Part shown: piece after piece, positions 8,619 to 27,799 of the stretch
Layout of the letters: each line of letters starts with the position of its first letter
How positions within the stretch are numbered: position 1 is the stretch's first letter
Source of the DNA: Paraglaciecola hydrolytica
Lineage (GTDB): Bacteria > Pseudomonadota > Gammaproteobacteria > Enterobacterales > Alteromonadaceae
Length of the DNA: 64,000 nt
Direction of reading: 5' to 3'
Assembly (NCBI RefSeq): GCF_001565895.1
Contig: NZ_LSNE01000011.1
Coordinates: 2,333-66,332 of the forward strand
Program-made: the position numbers and the translations under genes
The notes under the pieces: generated by a model
What the model saw: only the letters and a program-made list of their open reading frames with translations
What the model was told of the DNA's origin: nothing
Databases searched by the model: none

Positions 8619-8620
8619 CC

Positions 8621-9196: not shown

Positions 9197-9213
9197 AGAT
9201 CCCTCTCTATACC

Positions 9214-10799: not shown

Positions 10800-11244
10800 T
10801 CAACTAACCCTAAGCCGTACTGATAATATTTTATGACTTTAAATTATCAGAATCTTTCCATTCACAGACGTTTTTGCAAGGCCTTTTATACTACCTTACA
10901 TTTATTGTGCCGAAAACGCATTTAGCCAAAATAAGCTTAGTTATGCCCTTAACTTTAAATTACAAACCAGCGTAGTATTGATTTTGCTACATTTGCTTAA
11001 AAATCAATGCACCAAATGAATACTGTATGCGGTAAAATAGTGCAAATTTTGCGCGGCAGGTTATCGCAAAGGGACGATGAAAAGTAGCTTGTCATTAAAA
11101 ATTAATACTAATTTGCCTGTCCTCACTTAATATACGCATAATTATGGATTTTATTGGTTTCAAGTGTTTAGCTTGGCGTGAACTTTGATTAGACTTATGC
11201 GCTGGGTAATTTTTGATAACAATGTTCGTGTGTAGGGAAGTTTC
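10800..11244. promoter_or_regulatory. Divergent intergenic region between EPS operon and rmlB
   Basis: This 445-nt gap separates two divergently read operons and must hold their promoters. It is AT-rich, without the CACAGAG or CTAG repeats that fill neighbouring gaps. I see no clear operator, riboswitch or small gene. The open frame on the - strand (11095-11301) overlaps the rmlB start and is rejected. Confidence 0.5.
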
Positions 11245-12327: not shown

Positions 12328-12891
12328 GAGCAGATACTAGTGACTAGATGCTAGAAACTAGTAAAAGCCAGAGCAAGAGCTTTTTACCACAGAGTGCACA
12401 GAGAAAGCTGAGGTTAAGAAAAAGCAAAAGATAAACGGCGTTGAACCACAGAGATCACAGAGTACACGGAGGAAAAGACAAAGCGCTATTGGTTAAGAAT
12501 AAGACCTTAATGTCTTTCACTGCGTCATTCCGGTGGTCTTTTGAGCCGGAATTTGGTTGTTTTATTCATTAATGGATTCCTGCTAAAAGCATGCAGGAAT
12601 GACGATCGATAGAGCAGGGTCAATATTAGTGGCTGCAGTGACGATATATAGACTTGGTTTGATTTTCTTACCACCCAGGTTTTTGCTGTTCTCTGTGTAG
12701 CGTAGCCTCTGTGGTTCAAGTGTCTTTTGATGTGGCTTTCGGCGTAGCCGCTCCAAATTGCTTTTACTCGGTGACCTCTGTGGTGAATAGCTTTATCGTT
12801 TGTTGTTGCTGTAGTTTTTACTAGCCACTAGCCACTAGCCACTAGCATCTAGTCACTATTTACTGATTTTGTAATTTAATAAGGAAGGGAA
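12328..12891. repeat. Nested repeat block between rmlB and rmlA
   Basis: From left to right: CTAG heptads right after the rmlB stop (about 12330-12362), forward ACCACAGAG units (12386, 12444), the 82-bp hairpin element (12523-12604), the reverse CTCTGTG...CTCTGTGG unit (about 12692-12717), another reverse unit near 12774, then CTAGCCA heptads (about 12820-12850). The outer repeats face each other and the 82-bp element sits in their loop. No gene is supported; the 64-codon frame at 12525 is repeat sequence. Confidence 0.85.
12523..12604. repeat. 82-bp hairpin element, copy 1
   Basis: It begins CGTCATTCCGG and ends GCAGGAATGACG, so the termini CGTCATTCC and GGAATGACG are inverted repeats. An internal CCGG...CCGG hairpin surrounds TGGTCTTTTGAG. 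The same element recurs at 14190, 16237, 16832 and 41018. The REP/MITE-like nature is inferred from short size, terminal inversion and lack of coding potential. Confidence 0.85.
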
Positions 12892-13773
12892 ATGGCAAAG
12901 TATAAGGGTATTATTTTAGCTGGTGGATCGGGTTCTCGTTTGCATCCCATCACTCAGGGTACATCAAAGCAGTTGTTACCTATTTACGATAAACCGATGA
13001 TTTATTATCCCTTGTCGGTCTTAATGTTGGCAGGTATTCGCGACGTATTAATTATTACCACACCAGAAGATCAAGCCAACTTTATGAAGTTGTTGGGCGA
13101 TGGTAGTGCCTATGGCATTGCGATTTCATACGCGATTCAGCCGACTCCCGATGGTTTGGCTCAAGCCTTTATCATTGGCGAAGAATTTATCGGTAGTGAC
13201 AATGTGGCCTTGGTTTTGGGCGACAACATTTTTTATGGTCAGCATTTCTCTGACTACCTTAAAGATGCCACTAAAGTTGAAACTGGTGCCACGGTATTTG
13301 GTTATCACGTCAATGATCCAGAGCGTTTTGGGGTAGTTGATTTTGATGAACACGGCAAAGCCATTAGCATTGAAGAAAAACCGGCTAAAGCTAAATCCAA
13401 TTATGCGGTGACTGGCCTGTATTTTTATGACAACCAAGTGGTAGAAATTGCAAAAAATATCAAACCATCACATCGCGGTGAATTAGAAATTACCGACGTT
13501 AACTTGGCTTATATGCAAAAGGGTATGTTAAACGTATCGTTGTTAGGTCGTGGATTTGCCTGGTTAGATACCGGCACTCATGATTCGCTACTAGAAGCGG
13601 GACAATTTGTACAAACCGTTGAACACCGCCAAGGTTTAAAAGTAGCTTGTTTAGAAGAAATCGCTTATCGCCAAAAATGGATCAACACTGAGCAATTAAT
13701 AAAACGCGGCGAAGGTTTGGCCAAAACGGGTTACGGCCAATATTTGCTTAAAGTAGCTGATGGATATAAGTAG
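12892..13773 (+). CDS. rmlA: Glucose-1-phosphate thymidylyltransferase
   Basis: The 293-residue protein opens with the nucleotidyltransferase motif GGSGSRLHP (11-19) followed by [13 protein letters not shown], where K26 is the usual phosphate-binding lysine. The full length and the later GDNIFYG and [12 protein letters not shown] motifs are typical. It makes dTDP-glucose, the first committed step of dTDP-L-rhamnose synthesis. AAGGAAGGG lies just upstream of the ATG. The TAG stop is followed within about 10 nt by AGCAGACAA nonamer repeats. Confidence 0.96.
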
Positions 13774-13778
13774 CTTAA

Positions 13779-13939
13779 GAGCAGACAAAGCAGACAAAGC
13801 AGACAAAGCAGAATAAGCAGACAAAGCAGAATAAGCAGACAAAGCAGAATAAGCAGACAAAGCAGAATAAGCAGAATAAGCAGAATAAGCAGATAAGAGC
13901 AGACAAAGCAGAATAAGCAGAATAAGCAGATAAGAGCAG
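13779..13939. repeat. Tandem nonamer array AGCAGACAA/AGCAGAATA
   Basis: About 17 imperfect 9-bp units of two alternating types run head to tail directly after the rmlA stop, ending in AGATAAGAGCAG. The same nonamer appears at 26215-26280, after rmlD, and as coding sequence inside the gene at 49446-49799. Purine bias and short period suggest expansion by slippage. Confidence 0.9.
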
Positions 13940-14027
13940 TGACTAGAAACTAGTTAAGCGCAAAAGACAAAAGTGGTTTTACCACAGAGTTCACAGAGAA
14001 AAAAGTATAGATGGGTAAGACAACAAA

Positions 14028-14090
14028 GTAGGAGCTGCTTTAGCTGCGAATCTTTTAAAAAAGAGCTTCGGGACTAAAGTCCCTCCTACA
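14028..14090. repeat. REP-like double hairpin element
   Basis: It starts GTAGGAGCTGCTTTAGCTGCG and ends GGGACTAAAGTCCCTCCTAC. GGGACT/AGTCCC form a stem at about 14070-14083, and TAGGAG/CTCCTA are terminal inverted repeats. Degenerate relatives appear near 16970-16990 and 26336-26362. The layout resembles REP-type intergenic palindromes of gammaproteobacteria. Confidence 0.7.
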
Positions 14091-14189
14091 GTCTGGAAGA
14101 TCCATTTGAACCACTAAGGTCACAGAGAACACGGAGGAAAAGACAAAGAATGGTGTTGGTTAAGAATAAGACCTTAGTGTCTTTCACTG

Positions 14190-14271
14190 CGTCATTCCGG
14201 TGGTCTTTTTAGCCGGAATCGGGTTGTTTTAGTCACTAGTGGATTCCTGCTAAAAACATGCAGGAATGACG
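14190..14271. repeat. 82-bp hairpin element, copy 2
   Basis: Starts CGTCATTCCGG, contains the TAGCCGGAATC arm, ends GCAGGAATGACG. It matches copy 1 throughout with a few substitutions (TTTTTAG for TTTTGAG; AAAAACATG for AAAAGCATG). Confidence 0.85.
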
Positions 14272-14482
14272 TTAGGTAGAACAGGGATGATGATATTAGT
14301 GGCTGCAGTGACGATATGTAGACTTGGTTTGAAAGCAGCAAAGTCTGTTTTCTTAACACCCTGTTTTTTGCTGTTCTCTGTGCCGCACAGCCTCTATGGT
14401 AAGATGCTTTTACTGCTATTATCTGCTTATTCTGCATTGTCTGATTAATCTGTCTTTACTGTTTTTAAAATAAAGGTAAACA

Positions 14483-15031
14483 ATGAACGTTATTAAAACC
14501 AAGTTAAACGATGTATTGATATTTGAGCCCAAGGTATTTGGTGATGAGCGCGGGTTTTTTATGGAAACCTACCGCAGTGATTTTTTTACAGAGCAAACGG
14601 GTTCATTGCCTTTAGTGCAGGATAATCACAGCAAATCGGCTCAAGGTATTTTGCGTGGTTTGCATTATCAACTTGAACATACTCAAGGTAAATTAGTGCG
14701 AGTAGTGCAGGGCTCTGTCTTTGACGTAGCGGTTGATTTACGCCAATCATCAACAACCTTTGGTCAGTGGTTTGGCATTGAATTATCAGCACAAAACAAT
14801 CGTCAATTATGGGTGCCACCCGGTTTTGCTCATGGATTTTATGTCACTAGTGAAACGGCTGAGTTTGTTTATAAATGCAGCGATTATTATCATCCACAAT
14901 CTGAAGTGGCAATTAAGTGGGATGACCCAAGTTTAAGTATTGAGTGGCCCTTAGTTGATGGAAAACAACCCAATTTGTCGGCTAAAGATATCGCGGGCAC
15001 GGCGTTTGCCGATGCGCCTAAGTTTAAGTAG
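14483..15031 (+). CDS. rmlC: dTDP-4-dehydrorhamnose 3,5-epimerase
   Basis: The 182-residue cupin has the family motifs DERGFFMETY (21-30), RGLHYQ (58-63, with catalytic H61) and DVAVDLRQSS (81-90). It epimerises dTDP-4-keto-6-deoxyglucose at C3 and C5, step three of rhamnose nucleotide synthesis. Length is normal. AAAGG precedes the ATG. rmlD follows 11 nt later, so these two are co-transcribed, while rmlA is about 0.7 kb away behind repeats. Confidence 0.96.
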   Translation: MNVIKTKLNDVLIFEPKVFGDERGFFMETYRSDFFTEQTGSLPLVQDNHSKSAQGILRGLHYQLEHTQGKLVRVVQGSVFDVAVDLRQSSTTFGQWFGIELSAQNNRQLWVPPGFAHGFYVTSETAEFVYKCSDYYHPQSEVAIKWDDPSLSIEWPLVDGKQPNLSAKDIAGTAFADAPKFK

Positions 15032-15042
15032 AGACTCATTTA

Positions 15043-15918
15043 ATGAAAGTATTAGTTACGGGTAAAGGTGGGCAACTTGCCTGGGAATTAGCTCAACATT
15101 GCCCTGCAAATATTGAGCTTGTGCTGTTGGGCCGGGCTGAGCTAGATATAAGTGATGCTACTGCGGTCAAGCAAATTATTGCCCTGCATAAGCCTGATGT
15201 TGTGATCAACGCCGCCGCTTACACTGCGGTGGATAAAGCCGAAACCGATCAAACGACTGCCTATGCAGTTAACGAAAAAGGCGCTACTTACATTGCACAA
15301 GCTTGCAAAACCAACAATTGCCGATTGTTACATGTTTCCACAGATTTTGTATTTGATGGCAGCAAAACCACTCCCTATCAGACCGATGACCTAACCAATC
15401 CACTGAGTGTTTATGGGGCCTCAAAACTGGCGGGTGATCTGGCTGTACAAACAATTTTGCCAGATTCAGTGATAGTAAGGACTGCCTGGGTTTATTCGGT
15501 TCATGGTAATAATTTTGTCAAAACTATGCTGCGTTTTATGGCCGAAAAACCCCAACTGGGCATTGTTTACGATCAAGTTGGTACACCGACTTGGGCGGCA
15601 GGTTTAGCTCGTTGGTTATGGGCTGTTGCAGCTCAACCCGCAGTAAGTGGAGTTTTTCACTGGACCGATGCAGGTGTAGCGTCGTGGTATGACTTTGCGA
15701 TGGCGATTCAGGAGCTTGGTTTAGAAAAAGGCTTGCTGACCGAGAAGATCCCGGTTCGCCCAATACCTTGCAGTGCTTATCCTACACCGGCAAAACGTCC
15801 CAGTTTTTCAGTTATTGATAAAACTACTGCAGAGGCATCAGTGAATATGCAAACGATCCATTGGCGTACTCAGCTTGCAAATATGTTGGATGAGCTTAAG
15901 AGCAGACAAGAGCAGTAA
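15043..15918 (+). CDS. rmlD: dTDP-4-dehydrorhamnose reductase
   Basis: The 291-residue reductase shows GKGGQLA (7-13, NADPH-binding), NAAAYTAVDKAE (56-67), STDFVFDG (99-106) and catalytic YGASK (Y124, K128). It reduces the 4-keto group to give dTDP-L-rhamnose. Its last residues (KSRQEQ) are written by AGCAG-type repeat sequence, so the native C-terminus was probably replaced or extended when repeats inserted at the 3' end. CTAG heptads follow the stop immediately. Confidence 0.95.
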   Translation: MKVLVTGKGGQLAWELAQHCPANIELVLLGRAELDISDATAVKQIIALHKPDVVINAAAYTAVDKAETDQTTAYAVNEKGATYIAQACKTNNCRLLHVSTDFVFDGSKTTPYQTDDLTNPLSVYGASKLAGDLAVQTILPDSVIVRTAWVYSVHGNNFVKTMLRFMAEKPQLGIVYDQVGTPTWAAGLARWLWAVAAQPAVSGVFHWTDAGVASWYDFAMAIQELGLEKGLLTEKIPVRPIPCSAYPTPAKRPSFSVIDKTTAEASVNMQTIHWRTQLANMLDELKSRQEQ

Positions 15919-16236
15919 ATAGATACTAGCGACTAGATACTAGTTAAAAGCAAAAGATAAGGGCTTTTCACCACAGAGTTCACGGAGAAATCTGAGGAAA
16001 AGCGGGATATTGGTTAAGATGTACAGCAGAAACTAGAATCTAGCGAAAGCAAAGTATTATATTGGGTAAGATAATATATTGTGTTTTTTAAACTATTTTC
16101 TTAAAACCAAGTCTTTTGCTGTTCTCTGTGTTGCGCAGCCTCTGTGGTGAGATGCCTTTAGATCTTTTGCTGTTCTATGTGTTGCGCAGCCTCTGCGGTT
16201 AGATGTCTTTAGATCTTTTGCTGTGGTTTGGCCCTT

Positions 16237-16318: not shown

Positions 16319-16831
16319 ATAGATAGAGCAGGGTCGATTTTAGTGGCTGGAGTGACGATATATAGACTTGGTTTGAAATCAGCAGTAGGGGTAGTTAAAA
16401 ATCTATTTTCTTAACACCCAGGTTTTTGCTGTTCTCTGTGTTGCGTAGCCTCTGTGGTTAGATGCCTTTAGATTTGTTGCTGTGGTTTTGCCCTTAGTCA
16501 TTCCGGTGGTCTTTTGAGCCGGAATCGGTTTGATTTACTTGCTGACCTCTGTGTTGAATAGTAACTAGATAAAAGCAAAAGATAAGGGCTTTTCACCACA
16601 GAGTTCACGGAGAAATCTGAGGAAAAGCGGGATATTGGTTAAGATGTACAGCAGAAATTAGATGCTAGAAACTAGAAACTAGAATCTAGCCAAAGCAACG
16701 TATTATATTGGGTAAGATAATATATTGTGTTTTTTAAACTATTTTCTTAACACCCAGGTTTTTGCTGTTCTCTGTGTTGCGTAGCCTCTTTGGTTAGATG
16801 CCTTTCGATCTTTTGCTGTGGTTTGGCCCTT

Positions 16832-16913: not shown

Positions 16914-17113
16914 AACGATAGAGCAGACTTCAGCCGGGAAGCTTTGCTTTATGTTTTATAGTTGTTCTGCCCTAAAGGACCTCCTACAGTGTTGTTTTTG
17001 GCATCGACGGGCTTTTTTTGGTGACCTCTGTGGTAAATAGCTTTATCTCTTGCTGTGGCCTTGGCTTTACACTATTTACTAGCATCTAGCATCTAGCATC
17101 TAGCATCTGCTTT

Positions 17114-17584
17114 TTAAACTAAATTTTTAACTATGTCAGCATCTTGATTTTCGCCTGCTTGAAGGCGTTTGAGTTCAACGTAGCGACTGGTCTCTTCTGC
17201 TGAATCATTAATTATATGGTTGTTGACCACCAGCCAGCAGTGGGCGGCGAATTTACCTTGTTCTTTTTTCACTCCAATACTCAGTTGGCTATTGATATGG
17301 TGAAGATGCAAGAGCTGTTTTTGCACCATGCAGCGGCGTAAACAGTTTATTTTAACAAAATGATGGCGTGCTGCTTTTTCGATGAGATTGACTATTTGCA
17401 TCGCGGGTAAATGAATATTGGGCTGTGTTTGAATATCAGCGTGGGAGCTCAGCGACTTGCTCCACCAACGATAAGGCAAATAAGAGATTTTTACATGCCA
17501 CACTATAAACAGCAGCCAAGCCAAACACACCAACATTTGCTGTTTAAGGCTCAACTTAAATAGCTGTTTAAGTGGCGAGTTCAT
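17114..17584 (-). CDS. Lasso peptide maturation protease (B2, transglutaminase-like)
   Basis: The 156-residue protein matches the lasso B2 family: a papain/transglutaminase fold with NCLRRCMVQKQLL giving Cys81, then LSIGVKK, FAAHCWL giving His115, and IIND giving Asp127, a full Cys-His-Asp triad in normal order. An N-terminal hydrophobic stretch (about 17-30) may anchor it. It should remove the leader peptide of the precursor encoded at 22621-22776. It lies 5 nt after the B1-like gene, last in a - strand operon. CTAG repeats follow its stop codon directly. Confidence 0.88.
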   Translation of the reverse strand: MNSPLKQLFKLSLKQQMLVCLAWLLFIVWHVKISYLPYRWWSKSLSSHADIQTQPNIHLPAMQIVNLIEKAARHHFVKINCLRRCMVQKQLLHLHHINSQLSIGVKKEQGKFAAHCWLVVNNHIINDSAEETSRYVELKRLQAGENQDADIVKNLV

Positions 17585-17589
17585 TATCT

Positions 17590-17844
17590 TTATTTCGCTA
17601 AGCCTACTTGTGCTAGTTGGGTAAGTAGGGCGTTTAGATCTTGCTCTACTACCGCTGTATCCACCGCATATTCTGCGCTAATGTGTGTCGCGATCTGTTG
17701 ATGAGACTGGCCGGCTTGCAATTTTTCTAACATCAAGGCTCCCATGTTATTTAAAGTAAAATAGTCACCTGATTGGGGTTCTAAGATCACCAGTTCATCA
17801 ACCACTTTTTGGATCAATAATCCCTCTTTTAGTACCAGTTGCAT
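17590..17844 (-). CDS. Lasso peptide leader-recognition protein (B1, PqqD-like RRE)
   Basis: The 84-residue protein is a stand-alone RiPP recognition element. It has the PqqD-like pattern of three N-terminal beta-strands (LVLKEGLLIQKVVDELVILEPQSGDYFTLN) followed by helices (GALMLEKLQ, IATHISAEYAVD, DLNALLTQLAQVGL). B1 proteins bind the leader of the precursor and present it to the B2 protease. A GGAAGAG sequence lies upstream. It sits between the exporter (34-nt gap) and B2 (5-nt gap), the usual split B1/B2 arrangement. Confidence 0.88.
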   Translation of the reverse strand: MQLVLKEGLLIQKVVDELVILEPQSGDYFTLNNMGALMLEKLQAGQSHQQIATHISAEYAVDTAVVEQDLNALLTQLAQVGLAK

Positions 17845-17878
17845 CTCTTCCTCCTTGGTTTGTAGTTGAATATTATGT

Positions 17879-19546
17879 TTAGTTTTCAGCGATAAGTCGC
17901 CCCAACTCTAGCTTGTAAACCTTGTCGGCCACATCGCTTAAAGTGGGATCATGGGAAATCAAAATCACGCTGTAGCGGCTAAACAAGCCACTGAATTCTT
18001 CTTTAAAAGATTGTCTGGAAAAATCATCTAACATCGAAGTGGGCTCATCGAGTAGCAATATTTTAGGCTCTAACAATAAGGCTCGGGCAAGAGAAATACG
18101 TTGTTTTTGGCCACCGGATAACAATACGCCGCCTTCTCCTACCTGAGTATTGTAACCGTGAGGCAAGTGCTGGATAAACCGGTCCGCCCCTGAGGCTTTA
18201 CAAGCTTCGCGCATTTTTTCGCTACTTGGATTAACGACACCATAAGTAATGTTGTCAGCAATGGTGCCATTACATAACAGTACATCTTGTGATACCAAGC
18301 CGATAGCGCTACGTACCGAAGAATTGCTGGCTTGTGCGATGTCTATACCATCCAGCAAAATTCTGCCTGATGTAGGCTCGTTAAAACGCATTAATAAATG
18401 CAATAAGGTGGTTTTGCCCCCGCCGTTTTCGCCGTACAACAATAGGGTTTGTTTATCGGGTAAGTGAAAATTCACTTCTTTTAGTACTTCAGCTCGATTG
18501 CGATATGAAAACGAGACATTTTCAAAACGAACATCGCCTGATTGGATCTTGGCATCGATTTTGTGGCTGTGATTAGGTTCGGACTCTAAATGATAAAACT
18601 TAAGTAAACGTTCTGAGGCACCAATCACTTGCTGAGTTTGGCCATATAAACTGGCTAATGATCCTAATGGCCGAGTAAATACCAAGCCGTACAACATTAA
18701 ACTGACCATATCCGGAATACTGATCGAGCCATTTTGAAAGCGTATAAAACTTGCTACTACCACAACTAAAATGCCAGTCGAGGCTAAAAACTGCACCAAA
18801 GGCGACAATAAAGCCTGTAATTTAAGTTGCTGGCTACGTAATTCGAGTAACTCGCTGGTTTTACGTTTAAAACGAATAGACTCCGAGGATTCTTTGTTAA
18901 ACGCTTTAATTAGGGAAATAGCGCCGATGTTTTCGCTGGCAAGTGCTAACGAATCTGCCTGAGTTTGCACCAACGCTCGTGAAATAGGTTGCATGCCGCG
19001 GCTGACTATCTTGAGTACGATAAAAATCAGCGGCACAAATATGCAGATTAATATCGCGATACTTGGCTCAATGTTAAACATCAAAATCGATGCGCCCACT
19101 AAAACCAGTACATTAGGAACTAAATTGGTTAATACGCTAGAGGCAAAAAAGCTGATAACGGCCAAATCATTGCTCAGCATGGAGAGCACGTCGCCTCGTT
19201 TGTTTTCTTTAAAATATTGCATGGGCAGTACTTGGATGTGATCGTACAAACGGCTGCTAAGCTCTGCCATTAAACGTGCACCAATGAGACTGACATTATA
19301 AGTTGATAAAAAACGGAGTAGTGCGTGTACGCCGAATAAGGCAAACCAAAGTAGCAATATCAAGGTGTGGTTGTTAGAGATGCCATGATTTTCGGCAATA
19401 AAATAGGCTGAATATTTACCTGCAAAAAATGGCACACTCAGACTCACAGCGGTTTCGCACAACATCAAAAACACGACAAAAATAAAGGCTAACTGATGCT
19501 CTTTAAATACCTTTAGGCCGTACTCTACTCTCAGACTATTTAACAT
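17879..19546 (-). CDS. ABC exporter, probable lasso peptide transporter (D)
   Basis: This 555-residue half-transporter has about six membrane helices (residues 20-290) fused to an ATPase domain. Walker A GENGGGKTT is at 372-380, the signature LSGGQKQ at 476-482, Walker B ILLLDEP at 496-502 and the H-loop SHD at 531-533. It lacks an N-terminal C39 peptidase domain, in keeping with leader removal by a separate B2 protein. Position between cyclase and B1 makes export of, and immunity to, the lasso peptide the likely role. A general lipid or multidrug exporter cannot be excluded from sequence alone. Confidence 0.87.
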   Translation of the reverse strand: MLNSLRVEYGLKVFKEHQLAFIFVVFLMLCETAVSLSVPFFAGKYSAYFIAENHGISNNHTLILLLWFALFGVHALLRFLSTYNVSLIGARLMAELSSRLYDHIQVLPMQYFKENKRGDVLSMLSNDLAVISFFASSVLTNLVPNVLVLVGASILMFNIEPSIAILICIFVPLIFIVLKIVSRGMQPISRALVQTQADSLALASENIGAISLIKAFNKESSESIRFKRKTSELLELRSQQLKLQALLSPLVQFLASTGILVVVVASFIRFQNGSISIPDMVSLMLYGLVFTRPLGSLASLYGQTQQVIGASERLLKFYHLESEPNHSHKIDAKIQSGDVRFENVSFSYRNRAEVLKEVNFHLPDKQTLLLYGENGGGKTTLLHLLMRFNEPTSGRILLDGIDIAQASNSSVRSAIGLVSQDVLLCNGTIADNITYGVVNPSSEKMREACKASGADRFIQHLPHGYNTQVGEGGVLLSGGQKQRISLARALLLEPKILLLDEPTSMLDDFSRQSFKEEFSGLFSRYSVILISHDPTLSDVADKVYKLELGRLIAEN

Positions 19547-19688
19547 GCTCGGTCTATCAATCCATTTAACGGCGGTCAGGTATTGGTCAAGGTTTAAAGG
19601 TTATCACGCACTTTTTGCAAACAGCCAGTTTTATTAAAAATTTAATTACCTAACACTACCGTGGCTTGCATTGGCTTTAAATTCTTTG

Positions 19689-19786
19689 CTAGTTGCTAGT
19701 TGCTAGTTTCTAGTTTCTAGTTTCTAGTTTCTAGTTTCTAGTTTCTAGTTTCTAGTTTCTAGTTTCTAGTTTCTAGTTTCTGCTCT
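19689..19786. repeat. Tandem CTAG heptad array (14 units)
   Basis: Two CTAGTTG units are followed by twelve CTAGTTT units in perfect 7-bp register. The distal three units overlap the 3' end of the cyclase gene and supply its TAG stop codon and last residues. Similar but shorter heptads with varied last three bases lie at 12330, 12820, 15920, 16655 and 17075. Confidence 0.95.
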
Positions 19787-21670
19787 TATCTGCTTTTCAG
19801 GAAAATGTGTATTCAGCCAGGTGTAGGTTAAAATTGCGTAGAGCAAATCAACGTGTAATGGGTAACTCCTATCATTCACTACCCGCTCAAATTCGGCGAG
19901 TAATATATCGCGATCAACCAGCTCTAATTCAGTCAATGTATCGTGTTGAAAAAGTTGGCGAATTTCATCGGCATTTTCGCGCACCAAATTGCCAAAGTGT
20001 TGATCAAAGGTAATTTTTTTAATATTCCAACATACACTTTCGGGCAAATGGGTCGTCATGCTCTGGCGTAACAACCATTTAGGATAAGCACCTTGGATTA
20101 ACTGTTTGGCTGGCACAGCAAAGGTAAACTCCGCCAATGCCGTATTAAAAAAGGGATGTCTTACCGCAACATCAAAATTTTGACTTAATTGCTGGTAAGA
20201 TTTCATTGCATTATAAGTTGCGGTGGTTTTTAGACTTTGATAACGATTGAATCCCATTGGATCAATCTTTTGATTAAACGGATTAACAATTTGGGTTTCT
20301 TCAAGTGCTAAAGCTTTGGCTTTTACACTTAACCACGATGGCAAAGCGGTGGTCATATCGGATGCGGGTTTTGCACCTAGTATGCGCAATAACATATCGG
20401 GTAAAAAGGGCTTCACAAATAAATTAGTCAGCGTTTTTTTACGTGACATGCCTAACAATTTACTCGCCTGCAATACCTCTTTAATAACGCTAAAGTCACC
20501 CTCTCGCAAACGTTGGGTGTAGGCCACACTATGGCCCCAACACATTTCATCACCACCATTGCCAGATAACAAAACATCAGCACCGGCAGCCTTAACCGCA
20601 GCAAGTTCATGTTTATAGCGAGGTGACAATACTGTGCCTGGGCTTTCTAATGCAGTGGGATAAAGGTCTAAAAAATTTCTGTCGTCTGCACCATCAACGG
20701 TGAGTTGCAAACTGTCTTCTATTTTTAAGAATTCGAGCATGTGTTTGATCAACAGTGATTCATCACAACGTTCAGCTTGAGAATATAAGTGGGACAAGGG
20801 CAGCACCCGTTTGCCATGCGATTGCAATAAGTTGTTAGCCAGTGAGGTAATGCTGGTTGAATCTAAACCCCCACTCATTTGTGAAGCAACAATAGGTTTA
20901 TCTGTGTTGCAGGCTGTGTTAACACTATCAGTTAATAACGCGCGAAATTGCTCAGCATAATCTGCTGGATTGGTATAAATGATTTTGTTACTTGGTTCGA
21001 TATCCCAAAACTTATGTTGAGTAAGCCTAAGAGCACTATCTATCTCAAGGCGATATCCACTGTCTAATACATGGATTTCATTAAACAGCGAAATCGCAGG
21101 GTTAGGAAATCCGCCTAACCAACTGGCAAGCCCTTGTTCGGATAAGGTAAGTGGCTTATCTGCAATTAAAGACAAAAACCGCAGATCCGTTGAAAGTAAT
21201 ACGCCACCTTGTGTATGCATCCAATACAAGGCTGTTGCATTTAGAGGATCTTTACCTACGTGTAGTTGCCGCTTTTGCTGATCCCAAGCAAAATAAACTG
21301 CACTCCCATTGAGACCACGAATAAAGTTACCACCCTGTTTCGTCAACCTTTGCACCAATGTGGTGGCACTTTGCACCTTGCTTAGTCCCTTATGGTCCGT
21401 TAGTGATCCTAAGGGTTGTGGATTGCTCAAATTGGTGTGGCATAACATGCAATCGCCATCTTCAGATGCATAAAAATTGCTTGTATTTGAATTGCTTACA
21501 TTTGATCTATCACCAATAAAAAACGATCCCATTGTTAACTCTGGGTTTTTAGTTGCAAAAATTTCAGATACAATTCCTGCGTTATTGTTATCAATACGCT
21601 CCGTTAACCACTGTTGGCTATGAGTTTGGTTTGATGACAGGGATGTTATATAGGCAAACAAATGCTTCAT
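19766..21670 (-). CDS. Lasso cyclase (C, asparagine synthetase-like)
   Basis: The 634-residue protein resembles asparagine synthetase B: an N-terminal glutaminase-like half without Cys2 (it starts MKH), then the PP-loop ATP-binding motif SGGLDST (266-272) and SGNGGDE (369-375). Lasso C proteins adenylate the ring Asp/Glu side chain and close the macrolactam on Gly1. The start at 21670 fits the family; upstream in-frame starts would add a hydrophobic stub. The C-terminal AETRN and stop come from the CTAG heptad array, so the native end has been modified. It is divergent from the PEP-CTERM/precursor operon and 219 nt upstream of the exporter gene. Confidence 0.9.
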   Translation of the reverse strand: MKHLFAYITSLSSNQTHSQQWLTERIDNNNAGIVSEIFATKNPELTMGSFFIGDRSNVSNSNTSNFYASEDGDCMLCHTNLSNPQPLGSLTDHKGLSKVQSATTLVQRLTKQGGNFIRGLNGSAVYFAWDQQKRQLHVGKDPLNATALYWMHTQGGVLLSTDLRFLSLIADKPLTLSEQGLASWLGGFPNPAISLFNEIHVLDSGYRLEIDSALRLTQHKFWDIEPSNKIIYTNPADYAEQFRALLTDSVNTACNTDKPIVASQMSGGLDSTSITSLANNLLQSHGKRVLPLSHLYSQAERCDESLLIKHMLEFLKIEDSLQLTVDGADDRNFLDLYPTALESPGTVLSPRYKHELAAVKAAGADVLLSGNGGDEMCWGHSVAYTQRLREGDFSVIKEVLQASKLLGMSRKKTLTNLFVKPFLPDMLLRILGAKPASDMTTALPSWLSVKAKALALEETQIVNPFNQKIDPMGFNRYQSLKTTATYNAMKSYQQLSQNFDVAVRHPFFNTALAEFTFAVPAKQLIQGAYPKWLLRQSMTTHLPESVCWNIKKITFDQHFGNLVRENADEIRQLFQHDTLTELELVDRDILLAEFERVVNDRSYPLHVDLLYAILTYTWLNTHFPEKQIRAETRN

Positions 21671-22028
21671 TTGATTATAAATTGAGTATTTGACGGTTAT
21701 GAATAGCATGCATCAATGCACTGCAAAAATTAACCTAAAATTGCAATTTTCCTGTCGATTTTGTAAAAATACAAAATGCTTTTGTGCAGTTTTCGTCAGT
21801 ATTTTTTACATTTTTCATTCGACAAAGTAAAAAAGAGCATATATTTGACCGTTAACATTAAGTTAACAATTGTATCTATTTGAAATATAAGGATATATAT
21901 TAGTTGGAATAATAATTGCTTTAATGAATTTAGTTGTATAACGCCAAGTGATTAAGCGGTGTTGCAGGGATAATAAGCAGTTAGCCGTTACCGCATACCA
22001 GAGTCAACTTTTTTGATAGGGGATAGAT
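21671..22028. promoter_or_regulatory. Divergent control region of the lasso cluster
   Basis: This 358-nt AT-rich gap separates the - strand processing operon from the + strand PEP-CTERM/precursor operon, so both promoters should be here. Visible signals are a GG-N10-GC sigma-54-type candidate (21904-21920) and GTTAAC-type inverted words near 21850-21870 (GTTAACATTAAGTTAAC). No repeat of the families that fill the other gaps is present. Confidence 0.55.
21904..21920 (+). promoter_or_regulatory. Candidate sigma-54 promoter for PEP-CTERM/lasso precursor operon
   Basis: TTGG-AATAATAATT-GCT has the -24 GG and -12 GC with the required 10-nt spacing and a good TTGCT right half. The CAC of the left half is not conserved, so the match is partial. 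PEP-CTERM genes in several proteobacteria are under RpoN with the PrsK/PrsR system, which makes the match worth noting. The transcript would start near 21931, about 98 nt before the first ATG. Confidence 0.4.
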
Positions 22029-22610
22029 ATGAAAAAACTTTTAGGATTAGGCTTAGCTGTCGCAATGTTTGCTAGCCAGGCGCAAGCTGCATTTATTTGG
22101 GATGTAACTGGTGCTGACATGGCTGGTATTGAAGTCACCGCAACTTATAGCGATCAAACACCAAGTCAAACCCTTACATGGGAAGATTTAGGTGGTGATG
22201 CTGGTGGCGTTAGTGGTGTTGATTGGTCGTTGATGGTTGATGGCGATACTATGATGAATGATGGAAGTTCTTTGGTTGGTGCTTGGATATTATCTAACAG
22301 TAATCAAGCTCTTGTATCACTATTCATCAATTTAGGCTCCGCTTTTGTATTCGATACGCTAGAAGGTTTTGGTCCTAATAATGGCTCAGGTCCTGGTCGT
22401 GACTTCATTGCATTTCCGGCTATAGGATGGTCATTTTCAGGCCAATTTCAAGATGAATTGTATACAGGCTTAACGCTAAATGACATCGGCTTTGGTCAAA
22501 CCATGTTTACAATGGATACTGACGCGGTGGTTCCAGCTCCAGCAGCTTTATCTTTAATGGGTTTAGCATTATTAGGTTTAGCAGTACGTTCACGTCGTAA
22601 ACAAGCTTAA
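22029..22610 (+). CDS. PEP-CTERM sorting-domain protein
   Basis: The 193-residue protein has a clean signal peptide (MKKLLGLGLAVAMFASQAQA) and a C-terminal sorting signal at 168-193: VPAP motif, a hydrophobic helix (LSLMGLALLGLAV) and a basic tail (RSRRKQA). Such proteins are processed by an exosortase and released to or held at the cell surface. The mature domain is acidic, Gly/Asp-rich and probably beta-rich; I recognise no named domain. GATAGGGG lies before the ATG. It ends 10 nt before the lasso precursor and its last codons overlap that gene's AAGGAGA ribosome site, so translation is coupled. No exosortase gene lies in the window. Confidence 0.88.
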   Translation: MKKLLGLGLAVAMFASQAQAAFIWDVTGADMAGIEVTATYSDQTPSQTLTWEDLGGDAGGVSGVDWSLMVDGDTMMNDGSSLVGAWILSNSNQALVSLFINLGSAFVFDTLEGFGPNNGSGPGRDFIAFPAIGWSFSGQFQDELYTGLTLNDIGFGQTMFTMDTDAVVPAPAALSLMGLALLGLAVRSRRKQA

Positions 22611-22620
22611 GGAGATAATT

Positions 22621-22776
22621 ATGAATACATTGGAAAATAACATGTCTGAAAAGCTTGCATATACAAAGCCTGAATTAACTAAAGTAGGCAGTTTAGCTGA
22701 GTTAACTCAAGGTTTCGCTGGTAGCATACCAGACGAACAAGGTGGCAATACCAAACGTAACCCATTCCAAGGTTAA
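22621..22776 (+). CDS. Lasso peptide precursor (A)
   Basis: This 51-residue gene is too short for standard ORF cut-offs. The leader (1-30) holds the Y14-x-x-P17-x-L19 recognition motif, G23, and Thr29 at position -2 of the cleavage site (ELTQ then G). The predicted core is residues 31-51: it begins GFAGSIPDEQ and ends RNPFQG. Gly1 with Asp8 or Glu9 allows an 8- or 9-residue macrolactam ring. AAGGAGA is 5 nt before the ATG; a second in-frame ATG is codon 8. A terminator follows. Processing genes B1, B2, C and an exporter are divergent next door, which makes the assignment strong although the core is not proven. Confidence 0.9.
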   Translation: MNTLENNMSEKLAYTKPELTKVGSLAELTQGFAGSIPDEQGGNTKRNPFQG

Positions 22777-22790
22777 TCGTTAGTCATTTT

Positions 22791-22816
22791 AAAACCCGCT
22801 TAGGCGGGTTTTTTTA
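22791..22816 (+). terminator. Intrinsic terminator of precursor operon
   Basis: AACCCGC (22793-22799), a TTAG loop, GCGGGTT (22804-22810) and a T tract form a canonical rho-independent terminator 16 nt after the precursor stop codon. Confidence 0.93.
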
Positions 22817-24123: not shown

Positions 24124-24810
24124 TTATAAAAAGTTGGTTTTACGTTGTTGCAGATAGGCGGTTAATACTAGGATAACGCAAGTAAAACCAAGTTCTGCGG
24201 CTAAAATAGTCAGTGAGGTACTATTCCAGCTGGCGGTGGCGGCCTTAAAGGTTTGATTAATTTCTGGCATCCGCATTATGCCAATAATAAAAGCATTGAT
24301 AAGTAAGTTTGTTACGATCATGACAGCAATGGTAAAACCCTCAGAGTAAGTCAAAAGTGCTGTGGCAAGATAACAACAATAGGCCGCTAAAATATAGACA
24401 CTGACTAACACGACCAAGGGTATGACACCATTGTAAATGGGGGTACTGATGATAACCGCCAACATACCTAGTACCAAGATCAACCAAGGCACTATATATA
24501 AGACTAAGTTCGACAATAACTTAGCCAAAGCATAGTGCTGGGGACTGATTGGTAAACTCAAAATAAAGGGCATGGTTTGGTCTTTTTTTTCATTTACTAT
24601 GGATTCGACAGCAGAGCGAGCGCCTATCACGATCAATAAAGTGATCATTAAAATGGCCCCTACATTAAAAGTGATTTCGGTGGCCATGCCCATGATGCCA
24701 ATGGTTACAATACCTGCGGCCATGTAACCTGCGATGCCTTTTTTCATCAATTCCCAATCTTTAATAATCAGGCGTTTTATCATGTTGGTATTTTTAAATA
24801 AGGTTGTCAT
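24124..24810 (-). CDS. ABC-2 type permease of YtrA-regulated exporter
   Basis: About six membrane helices in roughly 228 residues, with no catalytic motif. The ATG at 24810 has AGGAG 8 nt upstream; the GTG nine bases earlier is too close to it. It follows the ATPase gene immediately, so the two form one ABC transporter. The N-terminal cytoplasmic segment MIKRLIIKDWELMKKG is typical of ABC-2 permeases in GntR/YtrA operons. Such transporters respond to cell-envelope stress or peptides; a link to the adjacent lasso cluster is possible but unsupported. Confidence 0.82.
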   Translation of the reverse strand: MTTLFKNTNMIKRLIIKDWELMKKGIAGYMAAGIVTIGIMGMATEITFNVGAILMITLLIVIGARSAVESIVNEKKDQTMPFILSLPISPQHYALAKLLSNLVLYIVPWLILVLGMLAVIISTPIYNGVIPLVVLVSVYILAAYCCYLATALLTYSEGFTIAVMIVTNLLINAFIIGIMRMPEINQTFKAATASWNSTSLTILAAELGFTCVILVLTAYLQQRKTNFL

Positions 24811-24821
24811 AAAGTGCACTC

Positions 24822-25700
24822 CTAGCGACTGCGTTTTATATTGGCGACAAAAATCTCTTCGAGGGACATACGGTGCTGTTCTAACACACTAAAACCGGCT
24901 TGTTGGAGTTGCGCAACGTAATGTGGTGAATACTGAGCAGTCACAATTTCTGCTATCTGGCCATTACGTTTAATGCTGACTGCACCAAGTACAGACTCAC
25001 TCGACGTATTGTTTATTTGGCATCTAAAACGTGCCCAACTTTCTAAGTAACTTTCTTTATCTTGTAGGGCTAATAATTTTCCTCTGTCTAAAAAGGCAAT
25101 TTGGTCCGAGAGTTTTTCGATGTCATGGGTATTGTGGGATGAAAACAATACACTGCGCTCGTCGTCGAGTAGGATATCAGCCAGCTCACAAATCACTTCT
25201 TCGCGGGCGACGGGATCAAGACCGGTTGTAGGTTCGTCCAATATTAGTAACTTAGGACGGCGAGCCAGAACTAACAGCAAACAGGCTTTAACTCGTTGAC
25301 CGTGGGAAATACCTTTGATTTGTTGATCGGCAATTAAATCAAAACGTTTTAACAGATCGGCGGCATAGGCGGAGTCAAATTTAGGATAAATACTTTTGAT
25401 AAAATCCATGTGCCATTGCAAGGTTTGACTTTTATATAAACGCATATCGTCTGAGGCAAAACCAATATCGTATTTGGCTTGGACTTGATGCTCAGGCAAG
25501 TTGTAGCCTAATGCTTTAACTTGCCCACTATCGGCTTTAACCAAACCCATCAGGATGCGGATAGTGGTCGATTTGCCAGCCCCGTTGACGCCAACCAAAC
25601 CCATTACCTGACCTTGAGGTAAGGAGAGGTTAAGCCCTTCCATCTTAAAATGTGGGTAGCGAATCGATACATCGTTCATTTCAAATGCATAGTTTTGCAT
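24822..25700 (-). CDS. ABC transporter ATP-binding protein (YtrB-like)
   Basis: The 292-residue ATPase has Walker A GVNGAGKST (37-45), a slightly unusual signature ISHGQ (131-135) in place of LSGGQ, Walker B LLILDEP (151-157) and an H-loop SSHNTHD. It energises the permease encoded just downstream. Its start abuts the end of the GntR gene (one shared base), consistent with a translationally coupled operon regulated by that repressor. Confidence 0.9.
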   Translation of the reverse strand: MQNYAFEMNDVSIRYPHFKMEGLNLSLPQGQVMGLVGVNGAGKSTTIRILMGLVKADSGQVKALGYNLPEHQVQAKYDIGFASDDMRLYKSQTLQWHMDFIKSIYPKFDSAYAADLLKRFDLIADQQIKGISHGQRVKACLLLVLARRPKLLILDEPTTGLDPVAREEVICELADILLDDERSVLFSSHNTHDIEKLSDQIAFLDRGKLLALQDKESYLESWARFRCQINNTSSESVLGAVSIKRNGQIAEIVTAQYSPHYVAQLQQAGFSVLEQHRMSLEEIFVANIKRSR

Positions 25701-26113
25701 TATTGTTCTCCAGCTTTCACGCCCGATTTAAGCGAGGTTTGCATAAGCAGTTGTTGTGCTACACAGTCGATAATTTGTTCATCACTTAACTGTAATTGTT
25801 TGCCAAGGTTAATGGTGTCAGCCAGTTGTTGCTCAAACTCTTGCCGTCTAAGCTGCTGATTTAAATCGGTATTAGCTGATACATAAGAGCCTTTACCTGC
25901 CTGAGTGACGATGACGCCAGCACGCTCCAATTCCAAATAAGCACGTTTAACCGTAATAACACTGACTTGAGTACTGGCGGCTAACTCACGAATAGAAGGT
26001 AATGGCATATCAGCAGGCCAATCGCCAATCAGCACCTTGCTGGTGATCTGTTCGACAATTTGCAAATACATGGGTTTTTTATCTGTGTTGGATAAAAACA
26101 GTCCAAATGTCAT
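25700..26113 (-). CDS. GntR family regulator, YtrA subfamily
   Basis: The 137-residue protein has the GntR winged helix at residues 13-75 (SIRELAASTQVSVITVKRAYLELERAG then GKGSYVS) and only a short helical tail, the size of the YtrA group. It should repress its own operon, and a 12-bp perfect inverted repeat lies just upstream. Translation starts at an ATG at 26113. Confidence 0.9.
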   Translation of the reverse strand: MTFGLFLSNTDKKPMYLQIVEQITSKVLIGDWPADMPLPSIRELAASTQVSVITVKRAYLELERAGVIVTQAGKGSYVSANTDLNQQLRRQEFEQQLADTINLGKQLQLSDEQIIDCVAQQLLMQTSLKSGVKAGEQ

Positions 26114-26386: not shown

Positions 26387-27799
26387 TTAGCCTCTAAAAC
26401 CAAAGAGTTTATTATTGATAATTTCTTCAACGACGGGTTGTGGCAGGCTCTTTTCCCATTCACCACGGCCACTGGCTATTTGTTTAAGTACTTCCCGTGA
26501 ATAGATTTTAAATAAATTTACGTCGCTACTTTCTATGCCAGCTAAGAAACCATTTTCCAATAAGTGGCGATATAAGAAGCGCAAATGATCTTGGACTTTA
26601 ACCGCGGTAAAATCGCTTATCTCGCCATTGTCAGTCAGTTCTGGATAAATAAATAAGCGGGTATTGTCAGGGAATAATTTACCAAAACCTTCAAGAATGC
26701 CACCTTCGACGCCACGATAGCTATCTTCATCAAAAATTTGTTTAATATTGACCATGCCCACCACAATACCTATTTGCATTTTGGTGTATTGGCGGAAGTA
26801 AGCACGCAACGAAAAGTAACGGGTATAGTCCGATACCATAACGTTGTAACCCAGTAAGTTGAGTAATCGTACCCTCTGAATAATATCTCCTTCTGGCACT
26901 TTGGCATCGTGGCCTTTGGCATCATTCAGTGATATTTCAGCGATTGCCACAGTGTTTTTGGCGTTGACATCGACTTGGGTAAAAAAGGATTTTTTACCTT
27001 GCTCAATCATATCGACATTTAAATTTGTTACTGGGCGAAATGAACCACGTATCGTTAATACGTTCTTTTTATAAAGAATTTCGGCAGGAACCACAACACT
27101 GCCATCTGGACGAAACATGATCGCTCGCGTTTTCCAACTTCTGATCAAATGCAAATTAATGGCGCGATTATCTAAATCTTCAAAATAGGGCCCTTTAAAA
27201 TCAATTGAATCAATTTCAATGCGACCTGGTTTCATTTGATCCGTGAGTGAATCGATGATCATTTTTGGATTTTCGAAATAATAATAGGCGGCATAGATCA
27301 AGTTAACACCGAGTACCCCTAAAGCATGTTGCTGTGCTTCGGCGTTGTCATCGAGCATGCGTACATGGATAGTAATATCGGAAGGCTCCGCACCAGGATA
27401 CATTTGTATACGCACACCACACCAAGCATGGCATTCGTTGTCTTGGTTAAAACGCTTGGCCGCCACCGTAGCCGCATAAGAAAAATAACGCGATGATTTT
27501 GAACGAATGTCGCCAACACGCTCAACCACTAAGTCAAACTCTTGCTCCATCATGGCGTTAACTCGTGCTTTACTGACGTAACGGCCATCTTCTTGTACAC
27601 CATAAATCGCATCTGAAAACTTCATGTCATAGGCTGACATGGTTTTAGCTATGGTGCCGGCGGCAGCGCCGGCAATAAAAAACTGTCTGGCAACTTCTTG
27701 TCCTGCACCAATCTCAACTATCGTACCGTATTTTTTTTCATCTAAATTCAAGCGTAAGGCTTTTTGCGTAGTAGTACGCGAGCTGACATTTTTGTCCAT
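26387..27799 (-). CDS. Conserved-looking protein of unknown function, 470 residues
   Basis: I do not recognise a characterised family. The protein has no signal peptide or membrane segment and looks globular and cytosolic. An N-terminal glycine-rich stretch (TIVEIGAGQEVARQFFIAGAAAGTIAKTM, about 26-54) could bind a nucleotide. CTGGAG lies before the ATG. Automatic annotations of similar proteins as receptors or adenylyltransferases would not be supported: there is no barrel, plug domain or HxGH motif. Codon use is like the neighbours. It is transcribed alone or with nothing closely spaced on either side. Confidence 0.7.
   Translation of the reverse strand: MDKNVSSRTTTQKALRLNLDEKKYGTIVEIGAGQEVARQFFIAGAAAGTIAKTMSAYDMKFSDAIYGVQEDGRYVSKARVNAMMEQEFDLVVERVGDIRSKSSRYFSYAATVAAKRFNQDNECHAWCGVRIQMYPGAEPSDITIHVRMLDDNAEAQQHALGVLGVNLIYAAYYYFENPKMIIDSLTDQMKPGRIEIDSIDFKGPYFEDLDNRAINLHLIRSWKTRAIMFRPDGSVVVPAEILYKKNVLTIRGSFRPVTNLNVDMIEQGKKSFFTQVDVNAKNTVAIAEISLNDAKGHDAKVPEGDIIQRVRLLNLLGYNVMVSDYTRYFSLRAYFRQYTKMQIGIVVGMVNIKQIFDEDSYRGVEGGILEGFGKLFPDNTRLFIYPELTDNGEISDFTAVKVQDHLRFLYRHLLENGFLAGIESSDVNLFKIYSREVLKQIASGRGEWEKSLPQPVVEEIINNKLFGFRG

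What the first reader, a model, noticed from the sequence alone, without database searches (positions are those of the whole stretch)
17114..22776. Complete lasso peptide cluster with divergent precursor
B2 protease (C81, H115, D127), B1 RRE protein, ABC exporter and Asn-synthetase-like cyclase lie in one - strand run. A 51-residue precursor, missed by ORF cut-offs, is on the opposite strand. The precursor being in a separate divergent operon lets peptide supply be regulated apart from processing enzymes; most described lasso clusters have A first in the same operon.
Basis: partly seen in the sequence, partly recalled or inferred. Interest (0 to 1): 0.88.

Follow-up and report, generated by a model that had tools for sequence, protein, structure and literature searches.

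The report
Lasso peptide in slime-matrix protein operon
A marine bacterium carries genes for a knotted (lasso) peptide whose sequence barely changes among its relatives and whose gene sits just behind that of a surface-matrix protein, which suggests that the peptide works with the cell's sugary coat rather than as a fast-changing antibiotic.

Summary
The lasso cluster is real: B1, B2, cyclase, exporter and a 51-aa precursor lie at the stated coordinates. A divergent precursor is not new; microcin J25 has it. In 21 of 21 cyclase loci of the family with sequence on that side this gene directly precedes the precursor. The 21-residue core is nearly invariant (28 DNA versions, pN/pS 0.09). Both published PEP-CTERM regulatory motifs (PrsR-type box, sigma-54 promoter) stand upstream of 24 of 26 pairs. 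An HprK-like kinase is strong in exactly the 17 of 246 family genomes with cyclase and precursor; it usually lies between precursor and the exopolysaccharide transferase WcaJ, but here both sit on another contig. Best reading: a conserved, probably phosphorylated lasso peptide made with the exopolysaccharide/PEP-CTERM matrix. That role is inferred, not shown. My searches found no paper on the link.

The parts
17114..17584 (-). B2: lasso leader peptidase (Cys81-His115-Asp127)
   Evidence: NF033537 64.2 bits over cut-off 33; triad located, invariant in the 20 proteins aligned, this one included
17590..17844 (-). B1: RiPP recognition element (PqqD-like), presents the leader
   Evidence: PF05402, NF033530 below cut-off; PDB relatives TfuB1 2.2e-9 and TbiB1 3.2e-9
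17879..19546 (-). ABC exporter (putative peptide exporter / immunity)
   Evidence: ABC_membrane and ABC_tran; found beside B1 in 17 of the 19 cyclase loci that show B1, not found in L078 and L079
19766..21709 (-). C: lasso macrolactam cyclase (Asn-synthetase-like)
   Evidence: PF00733 124.4 bits; NF033535 160.8 bits, below its cut-off of 525; 17 of 246 family genomes, this one included, at E<1e-90
21795..21810 (+). motif 1 (GTC-N7-TTTACA), predicted PrsR-type activator box
   Evidence: 26 of 26 pairs on this strand, 1 of 26 on the other; fits the description of motif 1 in PMC1569441 (passages)
21906..21919 (+). motif 2, sigma-54 type promoter GG-N10-GC
   Evidence: the only motif1+motif2 site on either strand of the 64-kb window
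22029..22610 (+). PEP-CTERM (exosortase-type) secreted surface protein, first gene of the precursor operon
   Evidence: PF07589 21.8 bits over 20.7, TIGR02595 17.7 over 16, both narrow; N-terminal hydrophobic segment and C-terminal VPAP-helix-RRK; homologue directly upstream of the precursor in 21 of 21 family loci with sequence there
22621..22710 (+). precursor leader (MNTLENNMSEKLAYTKPELTKVGSLAELTQ), YxxP...G...T motif, Thr at -2
   Evidence: NF033521 28.4 bits over 19; alignment of 26
22711..22776 (+). core GFAGSIPDEQGGNTKRNPFQG plus stop; Gly1 to Asp8 (or Glu9) ring predicted
   Evidence: Gly1, Ser5, Asp8 and Glu9 in 28 of 28 known cores; pN/pS 0.089
22794..22816 (+). hairpin plus T-run right after the precursor, likely intrinsic terminator
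   Evidence: read directly (acccgc-ttag-gcgggt-tttttt); not scored by a tool

Best explanation
A complete lasso peptide pathway whose precursor is tied into the PEP-CTERM/exopolysaccharide system. Steps supported by sequence: a PrsR/sigma-54-type promoter stands before a two-gene operon, PEP-CTERM protein then precursor A; B1 (RRE), B2 (peptidase), C (cyclase) and an ABC exporter are there to mature and export the peptide; an HprK-like kinase accompanies the system in every family genome that has it in my sample and usually lies between A and the exopolysaccharide-starting transferase WcaJ. Inferred: the kinase phosphorylates the linear precursor, most likely at the invariant Ser5 of the core; B2 cuts after Thr-Gln; the cyclase joins Gly1 to Asp8 (less likely Glu9) around the tail; the phospho-lasso is exported while the PEP-CTERM protein is sorted to the surface by exosortase; the two then act together in the extracellular matrix (as ligand and scaffold, or as an aggregation signal). 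Because the peptide hardly varies across genera, it probably meets a fixed partner and is not an arms-race antibiotic.
For: Lasso identity. PEP-A pairing: 21 of 21 family cyclase loci with sequence on that side (the 22nd, L057, is a contig that ends there); gap 1-30 nt in 26 of 26 pairs; duplicated pairs in L058 and L059 and a pair away from the cyclase in G244 (L083); the same order PEP-A-kinase in two genomes of another family, G732 and G971. Core constraint: 28 DNA versions, 13 protein versions, pS 0.743, pN 0.066. Regulation: both motifs in 24 of 26 pairs (25 of 26 if the spacer may reach 97 nt), 0 of 26 on the other strand, 3 of 10,400 shuffles; three PEP genes without precursor also match, 3 of 3; spacers mostly at 73-76, 84-88 and 94-97 nt, about a helix turn apart. 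Co-occurrence: strong precursor, cyclase and kinase hits in the same 17 of 246 genomes, 7 of 52 genera. HprK/PEPCK fold for the P. arctica kinase. Exosortase in 16 of the 17. EPS context: WcaJ family in 18 of the 22 sequences compared; the window has wzc-, EpsE-, EpsL- and rml-like genes 1-11 kb beyond B2.
Against: No product, transcript or phenotype was observed. Ser5 as phosphosite is a guess: known lasso kinases act on a C-terminal Ser or, for BsfK, on Ser3 (passages of PMC8498205 and PMC10368454); all 28 cores end in Gly and only 9 of 28 have Ser3. G142 has the whole set but no exosortase hit, and exosortase is also present in 5 of 5 Paraglaciecola without the cluster that I checked, so it does not track the cluster. 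Outside the family, the cyclase loci of G732 and G908 have no PEP-A pair beside them, and G908 no precursor or PEP relative at all (draft of 180 contigs, 91% complete). PEP relatives occur in 15 family genomes without the lasso set, mostly weak C-terminal matches but E 2e-21 in G196, so the PEP protein can act without the peptide. In the window's own genome the kinase is unlinked. Cyclase and B1 score below the curated cut-offs of the lasso-specific NCBIfam models. The motif pattern was drawn up after looking at these upstream regions. The PEP protein's predicted fold has no PDB match at E<=0.001, so its role is unknown.
Confidence: 0.6

Rival explanations
1. A microcin-J25-like antimicrobial: the lasso peptide kills related bacteria, the ABC exporter gives immunity, and the PEP-CTERM protein is an immunity or decoy surface protein or merely a convenient promoter donor.
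For: The divergent A versus B/C/D layout is that of microcin J25; several described lasso peptides are antibiotics (recalled); a dedicated exporter is present.
Against: The core is almost invariant over at least nine genera (seven of the family, two of another) while the PEP partner diverges to 30-57% identity. The operon carries PEP-CTERM regulation motifs and an EPS-initiating gene follows in most relatives. A conserved core does not exclude a conserved target, so this is weakened, not excluded.
Confidence: 0.2
2. The peptide is a regulator of exopolysaccharide synthesis (for example of WcaJ or Wzc) or a secreted signal read by the producer; the HprK-like kinase belongs to EPS control rather than being a peptide-tailoring enzyme, and the PEP protein is only co-regulated.
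For: Kinase and WcaJ stay together even where they are unlinked from the precursor (G000 and G019); in G019 the kinase-WcaJ operon carries the same two-motif promoter, in G000 it does not; A and kinase are absent together in G196, whose PEP and WcaJ remain.
Against: Strong kinase hits (E<=1.4e-45) occur in the 17 genomes with precursor and cyclase and in none of the other 229, whose best is 1.8e-12, as expected of a tailoring enzyme; published HprK-like kinases in RiPP clusters phosphorylate precursors (passages).
Confidence: 0.15
3. An ordinary lasso cluster; the PEP and EPS neighbours reflect a shared genomic island without functional meaning.
For: Lasso clusters sit in varied contexts (recalled); in G732 and G908 the cyclase stands without the pair.
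Against: Pairs persist over genera and in another family, a pair and the kinase are kept even away from the cyclase, and order and short gaps are constant.
Confidence: 0.05

Closest known systems
Microcin J25 cluster (mcjA / mcjBCD, E. coli)
   Same: Precursor transcribed divergently from the processing genes; processing proteins and ABC exporter present (passage of PMC13361873)
   Different: B is split into B1 and B2 here; the precursor follows a PEP-CTERM gene; sigma-54/PrsR-type promoter; kinase partner; different core (the last recalled)
Kinase-bearing lasso clusters (paeninodin PadeK, ThcoK, SyanK, pseudomycoidin; BsfK of Bradymonas)
   Same: HprK-like kinase accompanying split B1/B2, C and ABC genes; His, Gly-Lys-Ser and Asp-Asp of the BsfK motif have counterparts (residues matched by eye)
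   Different: No C-terminal Ser in the core; two glycines of the BsfK motif are Ala and mostly Arg here (by eye); PEP-CTERM pairing; a nucleotidyltransferase partner was not specifically looked for
PEP-CTERM/exosortase system with PrsK-PrsR-sigma-54 control (Haft 2006, PMC1569441)
   Same: PEP-CTERM protein, motif 1 ending in TTTACA, motif 2 GG/GC, EPS genes nearby (passages)
   Different: There most PEP-CTERM genes are described as single-gene operons; here a RiPP precursor is the second gene; spacer mostly 73-97 nt against a published mean of 62.8 (motif ends may be drawn differently)
RpoN-dependent pepA of Aquincola tertiaricarbonis (PMC9850573)
   Same: Sigma-54-driven PEP-CTERM gene tied to exopolysaccharide binding and floc formation (passages); the window's PEP protein has a weak match to the flocculation PepA model, 27.3 bits of a cut-off of 80
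   Different: The next gene there is prsT; no RiPP is mentioned in the passages seen
lpp / pba RiPP and lasso clusters of Paenibacillus alginolyticus (PMC13381572)
   Same: HprK-like kinase in RiPP maturation; a lasso cluster and an exopolysaccharide gene up-regulated together (passages)
   Different: Bacillota; no PEP-CTERM in the passages seen; different precursor

Membership tests
Lasso peptide biosynthetic cluster | Cys-His-Asp transglutaminase-like leader peptidase (B/B2) | tested here: met
   NF033537 over cut-off; triad invariant in the 20 aligned
Lasso peptide biosynthetic cluster | PqqD-like RRE (B1) | tested here: met
   PF05402 over cut-off; best PDB relatives TfuB1 and TbiB1; lasso-specific NCBIfam model just below cut-off
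Lasso peptide biosynthetic cluster | Asn-synthetase-like cyclase (C) | tested here: met
   PF00733 over cut-off; SGGLDS loop in the translation; lasso model hit 160.8 bits but below cut-off 525
Lasso peptide biosynthetic cluster | Precursor with YxxP leader motif, Thr at -2, core beginning Gly with Asp/Glu at 7-9 | tested here: met
   NF033521 over cut-off; alignment of 26 precursors found by a leader pattern; 28 cores
Lasso peptide biosynthetic cluster | Mature threaded macrolactam | not testable with these tools
   needs mass spectrometry or NMR
Kinase-bearing (phosphorylated) lasso peptides | HprK-like kinase partner | tested here: met
   HprK/PEPCK fold for the P. arctica protein, HprK_rel_A 34.1 bits, below cut-off 200; relative in G000 on contig 20
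Kinase-bearing (phosphorylated) lasso peptides | C-terminal Ser (paeninodin type) as phosphosite | tested here: not met
   28 of 28 cores end in Gly, so it is not filed as paeninodin-type. The BsfK-type Ser3 is present in 9 of 28 and Ala in 19, this window's core included
PEP-CTERM / exosortase substrate (22029-22610) | C-terminal P-x-P, hydrophobic helix, basic tail | tested here: met
   PF07589 and TIGR02595 over cut-off, both narrowly; helix 173-192 in the model; in some relatives the first Pro is Ser, Asn or Ala
PEP-CTERM / exosortase substrate (22029-22610) | Exosortase in the genome | tested here: met
   G000 contig 6, E 1.4e-64; 16 of 17 lasso genomes
PrsR/sigma-54 PEP-CTERM regulon | Motif 1 plus sigma-54 motif 2 upstream | tested here: met
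   position in the window 21795-21919
PrsR/sigma-54 PEP-CTERM regulon | PrsK, PrsR, PrsT genes present | tested here: inconclusive
   only the window and parts of contigs 6 and 20 were scanned for the GAFTG activator motif, nothing found; the whole genome was not searched with the PrsR model

The most novel reading that the evidence does not exclude
A RiPP that belongs to the extracellular matrix: the lasso peptide is a fixed, phosphorylated component or signal of the PEP-CTERM/exopolysaccharide coat, made one-for-one with its surface-protein partner from a PrsR/sigma-54 promoter, so that a knotted peptide serves cell aggregation or matrix building rather than warfare.
Probability: 0.35. Interest if true: 0.87.

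Novelty: new variant of a known kind. Interest (0 to 1): 0.7.

Why it matters
Native roles of most lasso peptides are unknown (recalled). Here an almost invariant core, a fixed surface-protein partner, a named promoter type and a dedicated kinase make the role directly testable: delete the precursor alone and watch matrix, flocculation and PEP-protein placement. If true it would link RiPPs to the exosortase system, whose substrates' functions are themselves mostly unknown, and would give a lasso peptide a role in building a bacterial coat.

Tried and rejected
Rejected: 'divergent precursor' as the novelty (microcin J25 has it). Rejected: chance precursor ORF (leader model over cut-off; 28 conserved cores). 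Weak precursor hits in G598 and G205 were dropped as chance because they lie inside open frames of 407 and 814 aa. Weak cyclase-like hits of genus g28 (E about 1e-21, five genomes) were dropped before the 17-of-246 count as other Asn-synthetase-like proteins; they were not studied further. Thirteen genomes with only weak kinase-like hits (best 1.8e-12) were likewise left out of the kinase count.

Led nowhere: genome-collection scan with the PEP protein (16 stretches matched a pattern, 0 confirmed); precursor against plasmids and phages (no match); PDB fold search with the PEP model (425 matches at E<=10, none at E<=0.001); search for a PrsR-like activator in the stretches held; core strings in papers (0 papers). 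Wider samples gave little: precursor in own genome and G100 only (plus one chance hit) of 394 genomes of the order, cyclase relatives in 3 of 369 of the class, this genome included, precursor in 2 of 11 of G732's order. A stretch between two precursors in L058 reads N, so whether a further PEP gene lies there is unknown.

Limits: relatives are not independent, so the counts and the p-values overstate certainty. The sigma-54 weights were set by hand from a recalled consensus; the two-motif pattern was written after reading PMC1569441 passages and the upstream regions. Of the three PEP genes without precursor that match it, two had shown their sigma-54 part; their motif 1 had not been looked at. 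One search found cores with a pattern that fixes several residues; it recovered all 28 known from other searches, and the 26 were found by a leader pattern instead. Starts of PEP and precursor genes were trimmed by eye in several loci. In one search the phase test used 25 spacers, one of them (L058b) entered as 49 although a better site lies at 85. Papers: of every paper cited only passages were seen; the library lacks most subscription journals. 'Not in print' rests on (15 of 55 listed; 20 of 1,678 listed); the six papers there with both kinds of term that I opened mention them separately or only in reference lists.
Full report
What is there. On the minus strand the window carries B2 (17114-17584), B1 (17590-17844), an ABC exporter (17879-19546) and an Asn-synthetase-like cyclase (19766-21709); on the plus strand a 51-aa precursor (22621-22776). 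Profile searches support each: B2 and the precursor pass lasso-specific NCBIfam cut-offs; B1 and the cyclase pass Pfam cut-offs but fall below the lasso-specific NCBIfam ones. B2 has Cys81, His115 and Asp127, invariant in the 20 proteins aligned. B1's best solved relatives are the lasso RREs TfuB1 and TbiB1.

Between cyclase and precursor, on the precursor's strand and only 10 nt before it, lies a 193-aa gene (22029-22610) with an N-terminal hydrophobic segment and a C-terminal VPAP-helix-basic tail, over the Pfam and TIGRFAM cut-offs for PEP-CTERM, both narrowly. PEP-CTERM proteins are proposed to be sorted towards the surface by exosortase (PMC1569441, passages). The window's genome has an exosortase. 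A hairpin with a T-run follows the precursor directly, so the operon here is probably just these two genes.

Relatives. The genome is a Paraglaciecola or close kin, judged from the nearest named relatives. I gathered 22 cyclase loci of the family: the window, 15 named loci and six unnamed. In 21 of 21 with sequence on that side a PEP homologue stands divergent from the cyclase with the precursor right behind it; the 22nd, L057, is a contig that ends there. Two cyclase relatives outside the family, G732 and G908 (of 369 genomes of the class), do not have the pair beside the cyclase. G732 has PEP, precursor and kinase in order about 35 kb away; G971 of the same order has PEP, precursor and kinase too, its cyclase not having been looked for; in G908 neither precursor nor PEP relative was found. 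The gap from PEP stop to precursor start is 1-30 nt in the 26 pairs examined. Two further precursors, in L058 and L060, follow a pair without a PEP gene seen before them. Pairs are duplicated in L058 and L059, and one lies elsewhere in G244 (L083).

The core. The 28 known cores, all different as DNA, give 13 protein versions of G[FY][AS]GS[IV]PDE[QN]GGx[TA]KRNPF[QTL]G; 14 of the 21 positions never vary. Mean pS is 0.743 (near saturation) and pN 0.066. The PEP proteins are 30-57% identical to the window's and the cyclases 35-58%. A peptide this fixed next to enzymes and a partner this variable points to a constant target.

The kinase. A family of about 330 aa follows the precursor in most relatives: it is found in 19 of the 22 sequences compared, and a WcaJ-type undecaprenyl-phosphate glucose phosphotransferase in 18 of 22; neither is next to the precursor in this window. 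The P. arctica kinase model has the HprK/PEPCK fold, with conserved His, Gly-Lys-Ser and Asp-Asp residues like those reported for the lasso kinase BsfK (PMC10368454 passages; matched by eye). In the 246 family genomes strong kinase hits (E<=1.4e-45; best of the others 1.8e-12), strong cyclase hits (E<1e-90) and strong precursor hits (E<1e-27) fall in the same 17 genomes. In the window's genome kinase and WcaJ lie side by side on contig 20, and in G019 about 18 kb from the precursor. That they are kept when unlinked argues for function rather than mere neighbourhood.

A natural contrast. G196, a genome of the same genus without cyclase, precursor or kinase hits, keeps a PEP gene followed about 0.55 kb later by a WcaJ 77% identical to that of P. 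arctica. Precursor and kinase are thus absent together while PEP and WcaJ stay. PEP relatives in general are wider than the cluster: 31 of 246 genomes, 15 of them without the lasso set, mostly weak matches to the C-terminal part.

Regulation. PMC1569441 describes two motifs upstream of proteobacterial PEP-CTERM genes: a 17-nt motif ending in TTTACA and, downstream, a sigma-54 GG/GC motif. Both occur in order upstream of the PEP gene in 24 of 26 pairs, not on the other strand (0 of 26), and in 3 of 10,400 shuffles; with the spacer opened to 97 nt it is 25 of 26, L067 being the exception. Three PEP genes without precursor also match, 3 of 3. Spacers group at 73-76, 84-88 and 94-97 nt, near-multiples of a helical turn. 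In the window the boxes are at 21795-21810 and 21906-21919, the only such site in 64 kb. The pattern was written after seeing the 26 regions, and relatives are not independent, so the numbers are descriptive. The unlinked kinase-WcaJ operon of G019 has the same two boxes; that of the window's genome has only a sigma-54-like box.

How it probably works. A signal through the PrsK-PrsR pair and sigma-54 (inferred; the genes were not located) switches on PEP protein and precursor together. B1 holds the leader, the kinase phosphorylates the linear precursor (site inferred as Ser5), B2 cuts after Thr-Gln, the cyclase closes Gly1 to Asp8 (or Glu9), the ABC protein exports. The PEP protein goes through Sec and exosortase to the surface; in Aquincola an RpoN-dependent PEP-CTERM protein, when overexpressed, lowers released and raises bound polysaccharide (PMC9850573 passages). 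I think the peptide acts there; that last step is a proposal.

What it is called. It is a lasso peptide cluster (the testable defining features are met) with a kinase partner. It is not filed as a paeninodin-type phosphorylated lasso because the C-terminal Ser is absent in 28 of 28 cores. Divergent A is known from microcin J25. For the PEP-CTERM pairing, the shared regulation and the invariant core I found no paper: each listed the same two papers holding both terms, one search listed four more among its first 20, and the passages of all six make no such link; one search found no paper with the core strings. A fair description is a new variant of a known kind with an open, testable role.

Noticed in passing
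window 12337-12361, 12821-12852, 15926-15943, 16665-16689, 17079-17103, 19689-19776: Arrays of CTAG-N3 heptamers: 21 overlapping matches to CTAGN3CTAGN3CTAG against 0 expected. The cyclase's last codons run into the 19689-19776 array, and a CTAGTTT array also stands upstream of the kinase on contig 20.
   Followed up: partly
window 17114-19546: The ABC-B1-B2 block is on the cyclase's strand here but convergent with it in the 18 relatives where B1/B2 are visible; CTAG arrays flank it on both sides, which suggests an inversion between repeats.
   Followed up: partly
window 6387-15918: Exopolysaccharide-like genes (wzc-, EpsE-, EpsL-like, mostly below curated cut-offs for the specific models) and rmlB, rmlA, rmlC, rmlD lie just beyond the cluster.
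   Followed up: no
window 24124-26113: GntR-type regulator plus two-part ABC transporter resembling PmtR/PmtA of phenol-soluble modulin export, below cut-offs; could be a peptide-responsive exporter.
   Followed up: no
window 26387-27799: A 470-aa minus-strand ORF with no Pfam (E<=0.01) or NCBIfam (E<=1e-10) match.
   Followed up: no
L080 (G142): Full PEP-precursor-kinase-cyclase set in a 99% complete genome without an exosortase hit.
   Followed up: no
L115 (G908): Cyclase and B2 relatives beside translation genes, with no precursor or PEP relative found in the draft genome; may have a different precursor.
   Followed up: no
L140 5971 + and 14322 -: Two more two-motif sites on contig 6 of the window's genome, possibly other PEP-CTERM promoters.
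   Followed up: no
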